From Simmondsia chinensis (Eukaryota; Streptophyta; Magnoliopsida; Caryophyllales; Simmondsiaceae): DNA of 64,000 nt. The position numbers were made by a program, and so were the translations under genes. Positions 34,071 through 58,400 of this stretch are shown here, piece after piece. Position 1 is the stretch's first letter, and each line of letters begins with the position of its first letter. The notes beneath the pieces were generated by a model. That model was given only the letters and a program-made list of their open reading frames with translations, was not told the origin of the DNA and did no database searches. The stretch covers positions 30,459,131 through 30,523,130 of the forward strand of contig JAGTTD010000013.1 of assembly GCA_018398585.1 (NCBI GenBank), in the 5' to 3' direction.

Positions 34071-35995
34071 TTCTTACCGTGGGCCACCAGGCGGGCCACC
34101 CATGGGCCGACCAATAGGTTTTGATTGTTTCTTCAAGGTGGCAGGGACGATCTCGGATGGCAGATTAAGGTAGGTCCTCAAGAATTCGATACCATCATTG
34201 GTAAGGTACCAGTAGTAGTGCATCCAAGCAAATGTCTCCCGGACATACTCCTTTGACTTGAAGCTCTGCATCAGCTTAATCACCTGGAGATTTGGAACAT
34301 CAATCTCAGGATGCTTTGGAAGGTTGTAGTCCTTTTTGGCATAGCAGACACCCTCTGTAATCGCATGAGAAAACTCAAACTTCAGCTCTAGAAAACATAT
34401 CATATGCACATATGACTGCATATGTTTTGAGTCTACAATCGCAATCGTAACTTTAATGTAAACAAAGAAGAATCCCAACATTCTCTCCTTGAGAAGCAGT
34501 CAAAACTCAAAAGCACAAATTTACTGGTCCAACTCTCATTTCTATGATTACCCACATGTTGCATCACTATACTGGACATGAATCTATCTTCGAATACATC
34601 AAGTTCATATATGTATGGTTAATTATCCTTTCTCCTTGCTTTCCAGACAAGATTAACAAATGGCAGATCCATAAATTTAACTCAGCAAACATGATATCAT
34701 CAATAGTTACAAGAAGAAAAAGATAAAATCTGGAATAAAGGAATGAAGCATTATATAGCGAACAGTGGATATGCATAAGAAATTTAAATGCTAATTAGTC
34801 AGTAAAATCACACTACAAGATGACTACCATTCTGAATTAACATTTCAACATTAATTCCGTTCTCATAATGACACAAACAATAATTAACCGGCAGAGCCAA
34901 ATGATATAACATAAATGAGCACACAATAAATTGAAAAGAGAAGCACGATCATATTGGTCCCTCATCTTCTCTTTTGTTCAAATTTGGTCCTTCATCTTAG
35001 TAACTTTGTTCAAATTAGTCCCTCATCTTCTCTTTGTTCAAAATAGTCCATAATGTTATATTTAATGACAGAATTGGTCCCTTGTCTTCTTAATTTTAGC
35101 TAATTTTGGCTCACCATTTACAGGACCAAATTGTCATAAACTAAAACATAAGAAAAAACGAGGGACCAATTTGAACTTGGTCCTTCATCTTAGTAACTTT
35201 GTTCATATCAGTCCCTCATCTTCTCTTCGTTCAAAATAGTCCATAATGTTATGTTTAATGACAGAATTGGTCCCTCATCTTCTTTATTTTTAGCTAATTT
35301 TGGCTCACCATTCAGGGGACCAAAATTGTCATAAACTAAAACATCAGTTATCATTTTGAATAAAAGAAAAGACGAGGGACCAATTTCAAATTGGTCCTTC
35401 ATCTTAGTAACTTTATTCAAATTTGTCCCTCATCTTCCCTTTGTTCAAAATAGTCCCTAATGTTATATTTAATGATAGAATTGGTCCCTAGTCTTCTTAA
35501 TTTTTAGCTAATTTTTGCTCACCATTCACGGGACCAAATTGTCATAAATTAAAACATCAGGTATCATTTTGAACAAAAGAAAAGACGAGGGACCAATTTG
35601 AACAAAAATACACGAAAGACGAGGAACCAATTTGAACAAAAGAAGAAACAAGGAAAAAATCTGAGCAAATTTAGAAACATGACGGACAAACAGTGTAAAT
35701 ATATGTATAATCAACCGGTATAGCCAAGTCGATCGTATGAATAAGCACACCAGAAATTGAACATTCAAGGAACTAGGAACACACCCAGTGTCTCAAGGGC
35801 TCCCGCCTACGCAGGGTCTAGGGGGCGGATGTACGCAGCCTTCCCCTTCAAGGTGTTAACCTGAAGAGAGGCTGTTTCCCAGTGCCCCCAACCTGAGGGT
35901 AAGGACTTCCCAGGAGGTCACCCATCCTGGTACTACTCTCGCCCAAGCACGCTTAACTTTGGAGTTCTAATGGGAGCACGCTTGAACATTCAAGC

Positions 35996-36031
<36 letters not shown>

Positions 36032-37124: not shown

Positions 37125-37730
37125 TGATTGTGTTAATTTAGTCCTTCTACTATCTATATTATGTCAATTTATTCCTATAATCAAATTAAAGTAAAGTTAA
37201 TAATGTAATTTTTAACCATACAATCATGTTAGATGTAAGTAATCTATTATAAATCTACCTATTAACTCAATTTCACCCAACTTATTACAGAACTATTAAA
37301 AATTTTATCAAAAACCTAGCATAAATTTTACTCCCTTGACCAACAACAACAACAATCCCAGTGCCTCAAGGGCTCCCACAAAAGAAGGGTCTAGGGGGGT
37401 TGATATACGCAGCCTTCCCCCTTCAGGGTGTCAACCTGAAGAGAGGCTGTTTCTGAGGACCCCCAACCTGAGAGATATGTCTTCATTGCATCATGGTGAC
37501 CTGTGAGCAATAGGGCATGAAAGCAAAAGAGTAAACCATAGCATAAAATAAGCAATACAAAGCATAACATCCTAGAGGAGACTACGAGGCAAAACCTTCC
37601 CTTCAAGGCAACTAGCAAGCAAATAGGCAAAACCTTCCCATGACCAAATTGACATAATATAAATAAGACAGAAGGATCAAATTAATACAGTAGTTAAAAT
37701 ACAGGAACATTTGGTATAAATAACCCTAAG
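37125..37730. mobile_element. 'gtcaatttagtcc' MITE split by a SINE
   Basis: The left part (tttagtctttatatttctg to aattttactcccttgacc) and the right part (gaccaaattgacataatat to ggtataaataaccctaa) are the halves of one MITE. The SINE at 37341-37638 interrupts it. Confidence 0.72.
37341..37638 (-). mobile_element. Common-tail SINE with unidentified head (type C)
   Basis: The minus strand ends in the common tail (gaaggctgcgtatatc... cactgggattgttgttg). The 5' part is not 5S: it carries gggaaggttttgcct twice, then CATG-rich sequence (ctttcatgccctattgc). Flanks cccttgacca / cccatgacca suggest a 10-bp duplication with one mismatch. Confidence 0.7.
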
Positions 37731-38369: not shown

Positions 38370-38621
38370 CCACAACAACAACATATCCAATGTCTCAAGG
38401 GCTCCCGCCTAAGGGGGGGTCTGGGGGTGTGGATATACGCAGCCTTATCCCTTCAAGGTGTAACCCTACCGATAGGCTATTTCCAAGGACCCCCAATCTT
38501 ATAGGATTAGCAACACGAGAACTTCCCAGGAGTTCACCCATCCTGGTACTAATTTCGCCCATGCACGCTTAACTTCGGAGTTCTAATGGGATCCTTGCAT
38601 TAGTGCCTGGTAAATGAACCC
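38370..38621 (-). mobile_element. 5S-derived SINE, type A, full length
   Basis: Flanked by a perfect 14-bp duplication taagagtaaaaact (38356-38369 and 38622-38635). On the minus strand it begins ttcatttaccaggcactaat, then 5S sequence (ggatcccattagaactcc, aagttaagcgtgc, aggatgggtgaactcctggg, ctcgtgttgc). A linker (taatcctataagattggggg) leads to the common tail ending tgttgttgttgt. The 5' end matches the copies at 54.6 and 60.5 kb. Confidence 0.93.
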
Positions 38622-38840
38622 TAAGAGTAAAAACTTTACATGTGAGTAAAAATATCAATCTTACCTATGAGTTGTAGAAAAGAAGAGACCTACATATAAG
38701 CATAGTGGGTTACTCCACCTAATGTCAATTAGTCTTAGAATGGAACCCCTATTATGCTTATATATGAATCTCAAGTTTTTCCTAACAGTGTGGGTTGAGC
38801 CTAAATACCCAGTAAAATTTAACATATCTTGTTTTACCTG
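38622..38840. repeat. relic of the 'ttaggatggaacc' repeat
   Basis: Shares gagttgtagaaaagaagaga, gtgggttactccacctaatg and ttagaatggaacccct with 4740-4935 and 42805-42900. Confidence 0.5.
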
Positions 38841-50074: not shown

Positions 50075-50665
50075 ATATTTTGATAATTATAAGTATACAA
50101 GAAATAAAAGATTATCGTATAATTAATAGTTATGAGTAATCCGATTGTTAATTAAACTGAATAAAAATTCGAAAATGGCGTGTTGTAGTGGTAAGACAAC
50201 AAATGTTATAACAAAGCAGTATTGCTGCTTAAAATGAATAATAATCATAATTTTGAAAAGTTATTCTGTTAAAACCAATTGGGGTTGTAACCTAGATTAA
50301 GATTAGGGGTGTGAGTTAGAGTGAGATGAGAAAGAGAATTAGAAGAAGGGGATGAGAAAAGTGTTACACCAAATCGGTGTAACGACCCTAGAATTAGGGT
50401 TTAGGGGAGTTAGAGTGAGATGAGAGAGAGAAATAGAAGAAGGAGATGAGAAGTAGAAGGAAGATGAGAAGCGTTAGTTTTTATTTGAATGAATGCAAAT
50501 GAAGGGAATACACCCCTATTTATACTTCCTCAACTAATTTCCACTAAGTACAATTTATTATGCTAATTGTATGTAACAAAAAGAGAGAAATAGATGAGAA
50601 AAGTGTTTGTTTGATCATTCTTGTTTATATCACAATTAATACAAGTATTTATAGCTAACAATCAT
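50075..50665. other. Intergenic with a short duplication
   Basis: gagttagagtgagatgagaa-type purine-rich sequence occurs twice (about 50312-50362 and 50406-50462). The rest is AT-rich without a gene. Confidence 0.45.
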
Positions 50666-50692
50666 TAACAAACTAATAATATCTCTAACTAC

Positions 50693-51002
50693 AACAACAA
50701 CAACAGTAGCAGCCCAGTGTCTCAAAGGGCTCCCGCATCAGCAGGGTCGGAGGAGGGGGGGGGGGGGGGTAGATGTACGCAGCCTTCCCCCTTCCAGGGC
50801 TACCCTAAAGGGAGGCTGTTTCCGAGGACCCCCAACCTGATATGCTTGTCGGCAGCAATGACGACTTGCAGCCCTATTTCACCTGAGGATGTGACATGAT
50901 GAAATCAACAGCCATGCTGATGGTGTTAATCTTGTCTGCTTCATTTTCAGGGATCTCAAACCTGAACTTTTCTTCAAGCGCCATTTCTATCTCCATTGTC
51001 TC
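50693..51002 (-). mobile_element. Chimeric retrocopy: SINE tail fused to mitochondrial ACP mRNA fragment
   Basis: A perfect 27-bp direct repeat flanks the insert (50666-50692 and 51003-51029). The minus strand opens at the insertion edge with mitochondrial acyl carrier protein codons (51002-50874), continues with about 38 nt of other sequence, then the common SINE tail (aggttgggggtcctcgg, ggctgcgtacatct, gcgggagccc) ending in ctgttgttgttgtt. The 5S head is absent. It has a single pair of target repeats and no intron, so it was inserted as one cDNA. Confidence 0.85.
50874..51002 (-). pseudogene. Mitochondrial acyl carrier protein fragment (last 42 codons)
   Basis: The reading frame gives MALEEKFRFEIPENEADKI and MAVDFIMSHPQVK then TAG, the C-terminal end of plant mitochondrial ACP. 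That protein carries the phosphopantetheine arm for organellar fatty-acid/lipoate synthesis. The fragment begins just after the conserved DSL(D) site, so the attachment serine and the transit peptide are missing and it cannot work. It is the 5' part of a SINE-tailed retrocopy. Confidence 0.85.
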
Positions 51003-51124
51003 TAACAAACTAATAATATCTCTAACTACTATTTTCCTATGTAAAGAATACTATCCCCTTTATTACATGCATCATATTCCGACATGAATATTTTTTACCA
51101 TAATAATGCTGCCAATTAAAAATT

Positions 51125-51540
51125 AGAGAGACTTATTTTTTAGTGTCCGACATTTGTAAAAATAATAAAAGGTTGCTGACCTTTTTTTATTTTTTTTTTA
51201 CTGCATTAGATTTCTCCCGAAATAGGGCTCTTTCCTACATGATAATGCCATATTTTGGGGTGAAAGTTGATATAATAGGTCACTTTAAATAATTATTTTA
51301 ATATATTGACAAAAAAACGGCAACTGACATGCCACCTTAAAAAACCTAGTGAAAGGATATTAACGATTGAGAATTAAAATTTTTCTTTTTTTGTAAAAAA
51401 GAGTCACGAGAGGTGTTTTTGTCTATTTCTTAACGTGAAAAAAAAAATTGATACACCAAAAAATAAATAAATAAGGTAAGAGACATTTTTATTATCTTCA
51501 AGAATGTCAAATATTAAAATGTAAATAACTCTAAAAATTA
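51125..51540. mobile_element. Long-palindrome MITE, copy 4
   Basis: Left agacttattttttagtgtccgac and right gtcaaatattaaaatgtaaata are inverted. The internal arrangement matches the 2.9- and 3.9-kb copies, but it is shorter. Confidence 0.55.
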
Positions 51541-51989: not shown

Positions 51990-52222
51990 GAACAACAATA
52001 ATAACATTTATAGTGCCCCAAGGGCTCTTGTCTGAGAGGGATTAGGGGTGAATGTACGCAGTCTTCCCCTTCAGGATGCTACCATAAATGGAGGCTGTTT
52101 CTGAAGACTCCCAACCTGAGATGCGAGGCAGCATGAAAACATGGTAGCATGGAATCTTTCCGTGGCAATCTCCTCTAAAAATTATGAAAGTATCATAGGA
52201 TATGAAATTACTAAAATGCCTC
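51990..52222 (-). mobile_element. Common-tail SINE, type C head
   Basis: The common tail is on the minus strand (gaagactgcgtacattc, gggcactataaatgttattatt). Upstream is a CATG-rich head (ccatgctaccatgttttcatg). Similar flanks (taaaatacaaaattac / taaaaatacaaaatcat) may be the target duplication. It lies about 270 bp upstream of the RVE ATG. Confidence 0.65.
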
Positions 52223-52445
52223 TAAAAATACAAAATCATGAAATTATTCTTTATCTTCTCGTCCTACATTAGAAATCTTTAACTTAATTGTCTCTTATTA
52301 TATATAAACTACTACCTGAACTAAAATTTACTGCCTCGTAAACAAACGTAAGAATTCCTATATGACACGACATTTACAGCACAGTACTCACCACCATAAA
52401 CCCATTCCCACCGTCTCACCCTGTGATCTAACCCTAGAATTCGAC

Positions 52446-52491: not shown

Positions 52492-55400
52492 ATGGTGTCG
52501 TTGAATCCGACTTCCCCGGAAGGGTTCTACCTCGACGCCAATGGGGCGGCGCTGGCGGGGATAAACCCTTTTTCCACGGTTGCGGTCGCAGCCACCGGCA
52601 ATACGGCGTCGTCGCCGTCGGATGATTCGAGTAGGAAGGTTAGAAAGCCGTATACGATTACTAAGTCTAGAGAGAGTTGGACTGAGCCTGAGCACGATAA
52701 GTTCCTTGAAGCATTACATCTGTGAGTAATTAATGGCGATTTTTGATTGCTTTCTCTAGGTTTTAATTGTTCCTTGGGAATTTATGATTCTTGCCTTAAT
52801 TTGACAATTGGGTGAAAGGGGTTATTTACACTGTTAGTCTCTTATGTTTCTAATTTTGTTGAAATTAGTCCCACATCTTTTATTTTATTCAAATTGGCCT
52901 TTCATCTAGTCTCTTATCTTTTCTATTGGTCAAAATAGTCCCTTGTGTTCTATTTTATGATAAAATTGGTCCTTCTCCTTTTAATTTTTATCTAATTGTG
53001 GTCAGAATACGGGGAAGAATTTTATCATAAACAAAATATGAGGTATTATTTTGAACAAAAAAAAGATAAGAGACTGATTTGAACAAACTTAAAAGTAGTG
53101 GAATTTAAAGACAAAAGATTAGGGACTAATTTGAACAAATTTAGCAAGATAAGAGACCAATAGTGTAAAAAACTCAGAGGGTAAGGTATAATCCTAATTT
53201 GTTTGAATATCTTTAATAAAGAGGGATAGGGTTAGAGAGAAGTAAATGAGTTTACTTTGTCAGCAATTGGGTAAGGGGTAAGGATAGGAAGAACTATAGT
53301 TAAAATAAGAGTAAAATTGTTCAATTTTTTTAAAAAATTTGCCCTTCCCCACATTAAAATGACATTTTTGAGTGAATTCTAGGATTGGAAATAGACCGAA
53401 ACTAAAATTAAGTAGTAAAATACTGCAACTAAAGAGATATGAGAAAAAAAAGATAAATGATGACATTGATTTCGCTGCTTGCCTCTATTATATATAGAGT
53501 TGCACCTCCCGGGGTGTAAATGAGTTAAAATTGTTTGACAATTGGGTAGAGGAGTAAGGATAAAGAGAGTTACACTTAAAATATGGACAAAATTGTCCAA
53601 GATTGTTCAATAATTTACCCTCCCCCTAAAGGTTTAATGAAGGGTCTAAACCCCTTTTATCCTTCTTTATCTTGTTACCAATCAAGGAGCATATACCCTG
53701 AAGTTTGGACATTTATAATTTAAATACCTAATTACCTTGATATTTTAATATATATGATGAGGTAACCTAAGGTTTAGAACTTTTGTCACTTAGATATCCT
53801 AAAGTTTAAGAATTTTTTTAATTAGGTACCTTTTACCAAAGTTCGTTGAATTTTATCACTTAATAATGGTATTTCTTTTTCTATAAAAATATACTTATTT
53901 ATTGTTCATACATAGTAGAACATCAACTTAGTTATGATATGGTTACCCAAAATTGACAATTGCTTTAGGTAATCTGACATGTTGAGTGATATGCCTTCTG
54001 TTATCACATTTGTAAACGGATACTTACTCTATTGCCTCGGTGCTTATCAGCTTCGACCGTGATTGGAAAAAAATTGAGGCATTTGTCGGATCGAAAACTG
54101 TGATTCAGGTAATTTCCTTAGTTTCAACTCTGTAAACTGAAAATTCTCCAATATGTTTGAATACTTGTCCGTTCATGTTGTATGGTTTACTTTGTTCTTA
54201 ACCTTACCAGCATTTGCAGGGTAAATGACATGGTAAATTGGTGAGGATTGAGGATTCTAATTTCATCCCCGTTCTTTTCCCTTGGTGTCTTTTGCCTGCG
54301 AGACCATAAGTTGTATTGATGAATGCACCTGTGGATATAGCATTATTACATCCTCAAATCCTCTTGCTAATCCATAGTTTCCATGATTACTTAATTTATT
54401 TATTCTTCAATCTATTTACTCTGAATGAGGGCTTTCCTTTCTGGTAACAGTTTGGAAACAAGTGATGAATGGCGGTGAATTGACTTTCTAGAGACTTCTG
54501 TGAGGAATATCTATCAATATTGTCAAAGTTATCTTCATAATTTTAACAAGCATTTGAATCATGATCATAGATTGAATCATTATCATAGTCCTTGTAAAGT
54601 TCATTTACCAGGCATTAATGCACCGGATCTCATTAGAACTCTGAAGTTAAGCGTGCTTGGGCGAGAGTAGTACCAGGATGGGTGACCTCCTGGGAAGTCC
54701 TCGTGTTACCAACCCTATAAGGTTGAGGGTCCTCGGACACAGCCTCTCAGCAGGGTTACACGATAACGGGGTAAGGCTGCGTACATCTACCCCCTGATCC
54801 TGCTTAGGCGGGAGCCCTTGAGGCACTGGGTCTGTTAGTGTTGTTGTTGTATTTGAATCATGATCATAGTCTTTGTTATCAAATTTTTTTTTATAGTAAT
54901 CCTCAATTCAATAATTTGCATCAGATGGCATTAATATCCTTGGATATGTTCTTCAATTCTGATGACCCTAGCCATCAAGCTAGGAAATAAGTGATAGAAT
55001 GCGTTAATGGTGTTATTATCTCTTTTTCTAACATAATGAGAGTAACCTTCCTCATGACATACCAAGTTCACATCTTTTCTCTTGCCTGGTCATTGGTACT
55101 CAAGAAACCACTAAGTCTAGAATTGTTTCTTTAAACATGTCCTATTCAGTGTGAAGGATTTGAATTAGATACTTAATCTGATTGTAATTTAACTTTTTAT
55201 CTGGAATATTTGTGTTAAACCGAGTGGAGTTTTAGTCTTCAAGCTAGAAGACAACGGCTTTCCCCTTCATGGCTGTCTGCTCTTTTTGGGATGCATACAA
55301 TTAGGATTGGAAATTCAAGATGTGTCTATTGACTGTGTTGAGTTGTTGGCAAATCCATTTCTATTAGGTATCGGTTTGCAATATAACTGCAGTATAGTCT

Positions 55401-58400
55401 GAATAAAAGCCAATCTGCTTACTGTTTACCAGTACTTTTGTATTGATAACAAGAAGGTATTGGATATTTGGTGAGAAACATGGATCAGTTAGTTGACTTA
55501 GTGTTTGACTGTACTCTCATACTGCCTATAACGTATGCCATATCTATTTAATAATACATTGCATAGCCTTTATCTTCGAAGTTCTTGCTTTTAGGGTTGG
55601 GGGCCCTTAGACAAAGCATCCCTTTAGGGTAGTATCTTGAAGGGGTAAGGCTGCATACATTTCACCCCCCTCCCCCAACCCTACTTTAGCGGAAGCTCTT
55701 TTGGAACTGGGTTTTTTTTTTTTATTGTAGCCTTTATCTTTGAATGTGACCATGAAGATGTGAAGGTTGTGTGTGTAACATTTGATTGTGCCTTGCTTTC
55801 TTTTCTATGCCTCTCATGCGGCCCGGCAACCCGCTTCCCTCTAAGCTTTTTGCATGAGAAACATGTTGGGAATGTATTCTTTAGTAGCAAAAGTAGAATC
55901 AGAGTATATTTTGCAGATACGGAGTCATGCACAGAAGTACTTTTTGAAAGTTCAAAAGAGTGGCAGCTCTGAACATCTACCTCCTCCTCGACCAAAAAGG
56001 AAAGCAGCCCATCCGTATCCACAGAAAGCTCCGAAAAACGGTTAGTAGCTTTCTTTCACAGAAATTATTGCTTGTGAACATACATGGCATCTTTTTACTC
56101 GATATATTACTCTCATGCGTGACAGGCTCTTCCCATGCATCTTCTATCCTACTTGAGCGCGGGAGTCAAAGGACCGACTCTCCACAAGTGCTTAAAAATT
56201 CTAATAGAACTGGAGTTGTATCTTCTTGGGTTGCTAATTCTGAGACTAATGGAGTACTTAATGTGGCAAAAGGTGTAACTTGTATGTTAAACTTGCTTTT
56301 TTATGATGCAAATAACAATCAAAATTTTGCATAAATTTTGACCCATTAGACTGCGTTTTGCAGGTGATAAGAGACCAGCACCATCTGTTGTGAATAATTG
56401 TTCCAGTAGTACAGAGAGCATTGCAAGGCAAGGAATTAAAACGAATGAACAACCAATTCATGGCCCTCCACTAAGAGGTGAATGGAAAATTCTTTTATCG
56501 CTTTCATTTACTGATAGGATGGTGATAATATAGACATTGCAGTGGGTCAAGAATCGTCAGTACTTGAATAAGTATACACTTATGTTGCTAAGGTTACATA
56601 TTCATGTATTATGTCGCTTCATGAATATTCTTAGCAAAATCATTGATCTCCTTCATTTGGGACAGTCTCCCTCATTCATCAAAAGCTGCTTTTGAAAGGA
56701 ATATGACTTGCTATTTCTGATTACCAACTTAAAAAAAAAATAAAGTGGTGATCCTCACTTTATTATAGGAAAGATACAATTGATGGTGCCGAATGAGGAT
56801 AATCCGGGACAGGAGTAATATTCAAATTTGAGTGTCTGATTCTGTTCCTGAAAATGGCCCTAATCTGAAAGGCAGTGGCTATAACAAGTGAATACGAGAA
56901 ATTTGACATTTGAGGAACATTCCTTTACGGTTGGTTCCCTATAGTCCTTGAATACACATTGAGCAAGAACAATAGAACAAGGTGACCTTGAAAGCTACCT
57001 TTTCAAGTGTCACTAGCAGGATATTCTGTCAATTCAGAGCACTCAACCAAAAACAACAAACAACAATCTAGTGCCTAAAAGCTCTTGCCAAGGTAGGGTC
57101 TGATGAGTGAAATGTACATAGTCTTACCCCTGTAAGGTGCTACCATAAAGAAAAGTTGTTTCCAAGGGCCTCCAACCCTAAAAAAAGGCATCAAGCAATA
57201 AAATTCAATCAATTCAAAGTCAAACAAATAATGCAGTACCAGACATGGAGACATGCAAGCAATAATAAAGCATCAACAGTAATGAACATGGAAGCCTAAC
57301 GGCGTTGTGGATTGGCATCGCTGTGCTACTCACTCCTAATTGAGAGCACTCAACCATTTGGCCAAATTGTATTTTCATCTAGATCTTAAAGTTGTGGATG
57401 CTATGCGCATAGTCATGTTTCACTACAATTTAGTGTACTCCAATTTGGAGTTCTTATTTTATTTCAAACATGAATACTTCTCTTATCATGGTTTTGCTTC
57501 TTGTAGTTTTTCCGCATGCATTTACTTGTTCTTGCATATCATATGACCTCAGCTTGTTTCTTCATGCAGTTTTGCCTGATTTTGCCCAAGTATACAACTT
57601 CATTGGCAGTGTCTTTGATCCAGATGCTACCGATCACCTGCAGCGACTTAAAAAGATGGATCCTATTGATGTTGAAACGGTAATCTTCTTTTAACTTTTT
57701 TTCCCGAGGGCAGAGGCTGTTTGTAGCTGCTGACCAGTCTTTGGGGGCTGGGTGTTTTTACATGGAAATGGATGCAGTGTCGGGTCGAGAAGGTTTTTTT
57801 TTTCGTTGGCATAGTGGTAAGAAGGAAGAACAAACGATAAATGACATACTTAATATGACTTAGTTATTATGTTAAGATGACTAAAATTAAAATATGGGCA
57901 TATACGAAAACATGAAAATCAACACAATGAATATTTGAATAGGATGGTGAAGAAGCTACCCAAAAAAAAAAAAAATATATATATATATAATGGAACATTT
58001 AGAATACATTTTGTACATAACATCACAAAATACTTTCCGTCTGAGAGAAAATTCATAAAAATCACCTGGTGAAATCCCTTTTTTTTTTTGCTAAGTGGTA
58101 GAAATTAGTATTATCCTTAAAAAAATTTCAAGTCACTGGGGACACTTGCCCCTGTTCCAGAACACTGGCTCCACCAGTGAGTGCATATGTCTTCATGTGA
58201 CTTTTTGCAAATGGTCTTCCGCATCCCCGTTTCTGTTCCGGAGTGTATCAGATCTAAATTACTACAAAGTGACTTGACCTTTGGGTGCAGGTATTGTTGT
58301 TGATGAGGAACCTTTCTATCAATCTGACTAGTCCCGATTTTGAGGATCATGTAAGCAATCATTCTCTCAGCATCTGCGTTCCCTTTCCTGAATTAGATTG

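What the first reader, a model, noticed from the sequence alone, without database searches (positions are those of the whole stretch)
50693..51002. Mitochondrial ACP mRNA fused to a SINE tail with a 27-bp target duplication
The insert has perfect 27-bp flanking repeats and, on the minus strand, 42 codons of mitochondrial acyl carrier protein plus stop, then the SINE tail. The 5S head is missing. This looks like LINE machinery starting on a SINE RNA and switching template to a host mRNA, which creates a new head for a retroelement and shows how this tail gains unrelated 5' parts.
Basis: partly seen in the sequence, partly recalled or inferred. Interest (0 to 1): 0.9.

Follow-up and report, generated by a model that had tools for sequence, protein, structure and literature searches.

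The report
Host exon spliced to LINE tail
A piece of a plant mitochondrial acyl carrier protein message, apparently joined by RNA splicing to the end of a jumping element's RNA, was copied back into the genome, which suggests a way for mobile elements to pick up new front parts.

Summary
The insert (50693-51002), its perfect 27-bp duplication and 42 codons plus stop of a plant mitochondrial acyl carrier protein (mtACP) are confirmed. The tail is not from the 5S SINE. It is the last 180 nt of an RTE-type LINE, which also accounts for 50836-50872. The likely parent gene is on contig C4 (119 of 131 bases identical). The junction falls at ACP AAATAGG|GTAACA, a donor-like site just after the stop codon, and at the LINE acceptor CCAG|GCTGC. 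The same acceptor is joined to the LINE's presumed 5'UTR exon, whose unspliced form reads CCCAG|GTAAGT (L092, with a 17-nt duplication; L097 and others). In L108 it is joined to a 54-nt stretch that, in a second host gene, lies between acceptor-like TTTACAG| and donor-like |GTAGTC. I read the insert as a spliced host::LINE RNA, retrotransposed with 5' truncation, rather than an RT template switch. There are no RNA data. The ACP donor is weak, 2 nt of junction homology remain, and no LINE was found in the stretches searched beside either source gene, so trans-splicing or a lost LINE copy must be assumed. No other ACP-headed copy was found. Spliced L1s and mRNA/L1 chimeras are known in mammals; here the acceptor hands a host exon only the 3' recognition tail.

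The parts
50666..50692 (.). target-site duplication, copy 1 (27 nt)
   Evidence: the repeat finder, 27/27 identical
51003..51029 (.). target-site duplication, copy 2 (27 nt)
   Evidence: the repeat finder
50693..50872 (-). last 180 nt of an RTE-type LINE (3' recognition tail), from splice acceptor |GCTGC to the end
   Evidence: 87-92% to seven LINE copies; one LINE copy carries RT and endonuclease-like reading frames upstream
50693..50706 (-). terminal (TTG)n repeat of the LINE tail
   Evidence: sequence; same end in the LINE copies
50755..50769 (-). run of 15 C (G on + strand), shared with LINE copies
50873..51002 (-). mtACP exon 2, 3' part, up to AAATAGG| (5' truncated)
   Evidence: 119 of 131 bases as parent C4:1908644-1908774
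50877..51002 (-). 42 codons of mtACP
50874..50876 (-). mtACP stop codon TAG
50872..50873 (-). inferred splice junction AAATAGG|GCTGCAAG
   Evidence: parent AAATAGG|GTAACA, LINE CCAG|GCTGC

Best explanation
The insert is a retrotransposed spliced RNA. An mtACP transcript used a donor-like site one base after its stop codon (TAGG|GTAACA). It was joined, by trans-splicing or by cis-splicing to a LINE copy no longer near the gene, to a 3' splice acceptor 180 nt before the end of an RTE-type LINE. The chimeric RNA thus gained the LINE's (TTG)n recognition tail. LINE machinery primed on that tail, copied 180 nt of LINE and 130 nt of ACP exon, stopped (5' truncation, with TTA shared with the target), and left a 27-bp duplication. 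Shown: anatomy, duplication, probable parent gene, both splice-site sequences, and the same acceptor joined to the LINE's presumed 5'UTR exon and to a second host exon. Inferred: that splicing made the join, that it was in trans, and that this LINE's enzyme did the work.
For: (1) The insert reads AAATAGGGCTGCAAG = ACP AAATAGG (parent continues GTAACA) + LINE GCTGCAAG (LINE reads ..TTTGCTCTCTTGATGCCAG|GCTGC). Of 50 unspliced LINE copies readable there, 42 keep AG at the acceptor. (2) The presumed LINE 5'UTR ends CCCAG|GTAAGTATTT; this donor pattern occurs at 119 places, reversed control 0. In L092 and L097 that exon is joined CAG|G and CAA|G to the acceptor; the L092 head is 80-82% to the 5'UTR over about 600 of its 743 nt, and L092 has a perfect 17-nt TSD outside it. 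L032 and L021 keep about 15 nt of the exon, L110 and L111 about 70-80 nt. (3) L108: 55 nt identical to C32:7106227-7106281, where a 54-nt stretch lies between TTTACAG| and |GTAGTC, here joined AAAG|GCTGC. Just before it the insert reads AGA, like the inferred upstream exon end (AGAGA|GTAAGA), not the intron end (ACAG). (4) Chance that the ACP break fits both a GT and the acceptor: about 0.001 if breaks are uniform over 181 nt.
Against: There are no RNA data and no gene annotation; exons are inferred from reading frames and splice-like flanks. The ACP donor is weak (6 of 9 positions of the plant consensus that I recall). The join has 2 nt (GG) of ambiguity, so a template switch is not excluded. 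In 29.7 kb downstream of the ACP gene the LINE matches are short tail or C-run pieces that lack the acceptor, and none was found in 6.5 kb after the C32 exon, so trans-splicing or a lost LINE copy must be assumed. L108 was found by searching at the acceptor, so only its host side is independent evidence. Its TSD is unsure: the longest repeat found (17 nt) ends 151 nt before the junction among local repeats, and the 13-nt repeat that I prefer was picked by eye. The TTA and AGA overlaps are 3 nt each. About 140 nt of the L092 head have no match in the C1 LINE.
Confidence: 0.75

Rival explanations
1. Template switch: RT copying LINE RNA from its (TTG)n end jumped at base ~180 onto mtACP mRNA at the stop codon, using GG homology.
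For: A 2-nt overlap at the join. Jumps seem to occur in this family: L021 and L032 carry LINE pieces joined to the 5'UTR exon end, and L031 has a ~97-nt foreign head inside an imperfect TSD (by eye). The process is proposed for fungi and mammals (PMC2104539, PMC13174262, passages read) and for 19-bp heads of Arabidopsis Sadhu elements (PMC2848041, passages read).
Against: The LINE break equals the acceptor used by 5'UTR-headed copies, and the ACP break equals a GT. The second host head ends exactly at a donor-like site.
Confidence: 0.2
2. Filler DNA: a 5'-truncated LINE insertion whose 5' end was joined to a copied piece of genomic ACP DNA during repair.
For: The ACP piece lies in one exon, so DNA origin is not excluded by introns. 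Short overlaps at both ends.
Against: Both identified host heads end at GT; the L108 head abuts AGA of the inferred upstream exon rather than its intron.
Confidence: 0.04
3. The ACP gene carried a SINE or LINE tail in its 3'UTR and that unspliced mRNA was retroposed.
For: A 5S SINE with a (TTG)n tail lies ~308 nt after the stop codon (by eye).
Against: That SINE's tail is of the 5S type, lacks the first ~33 nt of the insert's tail, and the 308 nt in between are absent.
Confidence: 0.01

Closest known systems
Spliced integrated retrotransposed elements (SpIREs) of human L1 (PMC5860796, abstract and section list read)
   Same: Spliced LINE RNA retrotransposed; cf. L092 and L097 here
   Different: RTE-type LINE in a plant; the removed stretch (5,533 nt in one copy) holds the readable ORF pieces and leaves 5'UTR plus a 180-nt tail
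mRNA/L1 chimeras, 17 in human (PMC13174262, passages read)
   Same: Host exon on the 5' side of a LINE, splice sites at the join, trans-splicing proposed
   Different: There most carry first exons on L1 that can be full-length; here internal or last exons on the 3' recognition tail alone, so the product is SINE-sized
MINE / template-switch chimeras of Magnaporthe (PMC2104539, abstract and part 1 of the results read)
   Same: Cellular RNA directly fused to a 5'-truncated LINE inside one TSD
   Different: Explained there by template jumps at specific sites; here the preferred site is a splice acceptor
Partial Sadhu elements of Arabidopsis (PMC2848041, passages read)
   Same: Plant non-LTR copies with a foreign 5' piece inside a TSD
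   Different: 19-bp foreign piece, ascribed to template switching; no splice site discussed (term 'splic' absent from the text)
Tobacco TS SINE and RTE tails (PMC3747384, passages read)
   Same: (TTG)n end; ~100-nt 3' part shared with an RTE LINE
   Different: Here the head is a host coding exon, single copy

Membership tests
LINE-mediated chimeric retroposon | one TSD around the whole chimera, none between its parts | tested here: met
   27/27 TSD, no other direct repeat family of 12 nt or more in 50500-51200
LINE-mediated chimeric retroposon | 3' part ends at the LINE 3' end | tested here: met
   (TTG)n end as in the LINE copies
RTE-clade LINE (source of tail) | RT and AP-type endonuclease, (TTG)n end | tested here: inconclusive
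   RVT_1 E 2.9e-22; endonuclease hit E 4.5e-4, below the curated cut-off; (TTG)n met; no clade tree made
Processed pseudogene | introns of the parent absent | not testable with these tools
   captured piece lies within exon 2
Processed pseudogene | poly(A) tail | tested here: not met
   ends in a LINE (TTG)n tail
SINE (multi-copy) | further copies with the same head | tested here: not met
   3 matches to the ACP part: itself, parent, paralogue
SINE (multi-copy) | Pol III promoter head (5S, tRNA, 7SL) | tested here: not met
   no Rfam family at gathering score within 50693-51002; the three 5S hits lie elsewhere in the window
Spliced LINE chimera | break at 5' donor in host and 3' acceptor in LINE | tested here: met
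   AAATAGG|GTAACA (weak donor) and CCAG|GCTGC
Spliced LINE chimera | spliced RNA observed | not tested
   no transcript data held

The most novel reading that the evidence does not exclude
This plant LINE carries a conserved 3' splice acceptor just before its 3' recognition tail. By splicing, it can turn host exons or its own 5'UTR into short RNAs that the LINE enzyme copies, so exon trapping by a LINE tail would be a route by which SINE-sized elements gain new heads.
Probability: 0.45. Interest if true: 0.85.

Novelty: new variant of a known kind. Interest (0 to 1): 0.7.

Why it matters
How SINEs obtain a LINE tail is an open question usually answered by template switching (my recollection of the field). 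Here the joins in one plant genome point to ordinary splicing: the LINE end behaves as a mobile terminal exon. If true, the model makes sequence predictions that can be tested across plants with RTE LINEs and in RNA data: breaks at GT donors, a fixed LINE acceptor, and exon-exon junctions inside heads.

Tried and rejected
ACP 3'UTR as the origin of 50836-50873: rejected. Intron absence as a test: not usable. Protein search in the large database: no candidate. Viral contigs pattern: none. Template switching as the general cause: kept as a rival. The sources of the L031 head (~97 nt) and of the 'ATAAAAAACACGAGTCTAG' head shared by L033 and L112 were not found, because those searches did not complete (and 117, 121, 124, 126, 129, 131, 133, 136, 139). 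Unresolved: L109; six of the nine places and eight of the 15 were not read.

Full report
What is there. On the minus strand the insert reads 42 codons of mitochondrial acyl carrier protein, TAG, then a tail ending in (TTG)n, inside a perfect 27-bp duplication. The protein piece matches plant mitochondrial ACP2 in solved structures at E 3e-14. The window lies at C30:30459131-30523130 of an unnamed 831-Mb assembly; the full insert matches only there. That the host is a flowering plant is my inference from such matches.

The tail. In one search, 40 of 3,311 candidates were scored; the 39 besides the insert itself match it from base 1-9 to base 176-182 at 83-92%. Upstream of base 181 the copies L003, L004, L006 and L008 continue with a shared sequence. 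In the L003 copy on C1 this carries a reverse transcriptase (RVT_1, E 2.9e-22) and an endonuclease-like piece (E 4.5e-4, below the curated cut-off), in frames broken by stops. (TTG)n or (TTGATG)n ends are reported for all 7 RTE-clade families of flowering plants listed in PMC3747384 (passages read); I made no clade tree. The 5S-derived SINEs in the window (three Rfam hits) have a related but distinct tail. So the tail is a LINE end, and 50836-50872 belongs to it.

The parent. The ACP part has three matches in the genome: itself; C4:1908644-1908774 (119 of 131 bases); and a paralogue on C6 (80%). The C4 gene reads as two coding exons, and the piece lies inside the second. Its product matches PP-binding, E 6.5e-14. 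Of 12 differences, 9 are G>A or C>T, 5 of these at CpG, as expected of a methylated, decaying copy. The C4 gene has a 5S SINE ~308 nt after its stop codon, but that tail is not the source. The LINE matches in 29.7 kb downstream are short tail or C-run pieces that start at least ~30 nt inside the tail.

The junction. Parent: GAAATAGG|GTAACAAAAG. Insert: GAAATAGG|GCTGCAAG. LINE: TTATTTGCTCTCTTGATGCCAG|GCTGCAAG. The break is thus where a donor and an acceptor would be joined, with GG shared. At the 5' end TTA is shared by target and parent. The chance of a break fitting both a GT and the acceptor is about 0.001 under a uniform model. The donor is weak: 6 of 9 positions of the plant consensus that I recall.

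Other copies. I surveyed 95 LINE 3' ends: the 70 places of a 29-base pattern, the insert's own included, and 25 more (two further places were not taken). These are the copies closest to the query, not a random sample. could read the acceptor region in 64; with L092, missed by that filter because of an indel, 65. By my classification 52 are unspliced LINE (50 by score, L077 and L101 by eye). Five carry the LINE 5'UTR exon end (L092, L097, L032, L021, and weakly L049 with about 6 nt). One is the ACP copy, one (L033) has an unidentified head, and six are truncated or deleted near there (L020, L023, L024, L062, L071, L098). The 743-nt head of L092 is 80-82% identical, over about 600 nt, to the presumed 5'UTR of the C1 LINE, where the sequence after the head's last base is GTAAGTATTT. 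L092 is enclosed by a perfect 17-nt duplication; for L097 one search found no duplication of more than 8 nt. In the C1 LINE the stretch from donor to acceptor is 5,533 nt and holds the readable ORF pieces. The donor pattern occurs 119 times, control 0; the spliced-junction pattern 9 times with up to 2 mismatches, control 0, of which 3 were already known and 6 were not read.

A second host exon. A pattern for tail copies not preceded by LINE sequence gave 15 places, reversed control 10, so several are chance. About eight look like LINE tails by eye; of these, two were already held (L032, L021), five were fetched and one was not; the other seven were not fetched. One, at C9 (L108), has a short head with an open frame. 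It is identical over 55 nt to C32:7106227-7106281; two weaker matches lie on C2 (89%) and C29 (87%). At C32 it is a 54-nt stretch between TTTACAG| and |GTAGTC, and an upstream exon in the same frame ends AGAGA|GTAAGA. The insert has AGA before the exon, as the mRNA would, not the intron end. The translation (..VIHFDRETR E FEVLDEEPGDDEDGGGQ) resembles SGF29; that name is recalled and comes from no call. No LINE match lies in the 1.5 kb before or the 6.5 kb after that exon. Its duplication is uncertain: CTAAAATTAATTT (13 nt, by eye) next to the exon, or a 17-nt repeat ending 151 nt before the junction.

Mechanism. Splicing explains the fixed LINE break, the GT at each identified host head, and, if it acts in trans, the absence of LINE in the stretches searched near the source genes. 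Template switching is known (PMC2104539; PMC13174262; PMC2848041) and seems to occur in this family too: L021 and L032 carry LINE pieces joined to the 5'UTR exon end, and L031 has a foreign head joined elsewhere. For the ACP insert splicing is the better fit, not proven.

Known or new. Human SpIREs (PMC5860796, abstract read) and mRNA/L1 chimeras with splice sites (PMC13174262, passages read) are the closest. In plants, searches listed a paper on Arabidopsis Sadhu elements, whose passages ascribe 19-bp foreign heads to template switching (PMC2848041), and one on rice chimeric retrogenes, in whose main text the terms splic, template switch, RTE and SINE do not occur (PMC6881317). I saw no paper describing spliced or host-exon chimeras of a plant RTE LINE in the listings of searches. 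Most listed papers were not opened, and only the held open library was searched.

Noticed in passing
54599-54850, 38370-38625, 35775-35998; also L010:1937-2187 and 2683-2885: A 5S-rRNA-derived SINE family with an RTE-like (TTG)n tail in what looks like a flowering plant (Rfam RF00001 at the three window places; the L010 copies by eye). Listings of searches of the held library showed no title or abstract on plant 5S SINEs.
   Followed up: partly
L092, L097, L110, L111: Short elements made of the LINE 5'UTR exon (whole or its end) and the 180-nt tail, with the ORF apparently spliced out; L092 has a perfect 17-nt TSD.
   Followed up: partly
L033 and L112: Two copies share the head end ATAAAAAACACGAGTCTAG before the acceptor; its source was not found because the searches did not complete.
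   Followed up: no
L031: LINE copy with a ~97-nt AT-rich foreign head inside an imperfect ~28-nt TSD, joined upstream of the acceptor; a possible true template switch.
   Followed up: no
57054-57342, 51991-52224, 37341-37624: Other tail copies with heads that match neither 5S nor this LINE; they may be 3'UTRs of other RTE subfamilies.
   Followed up: partly
5S-SINE tails, e.g. 35899 and 49948 (minus): The 5S head meets the tail at ..CTCAG|GTTGGGGG or TATAAG|GTTG, ~35 nt inside the LINE tail; a second acceptor-like boundary.
   Followed up: no
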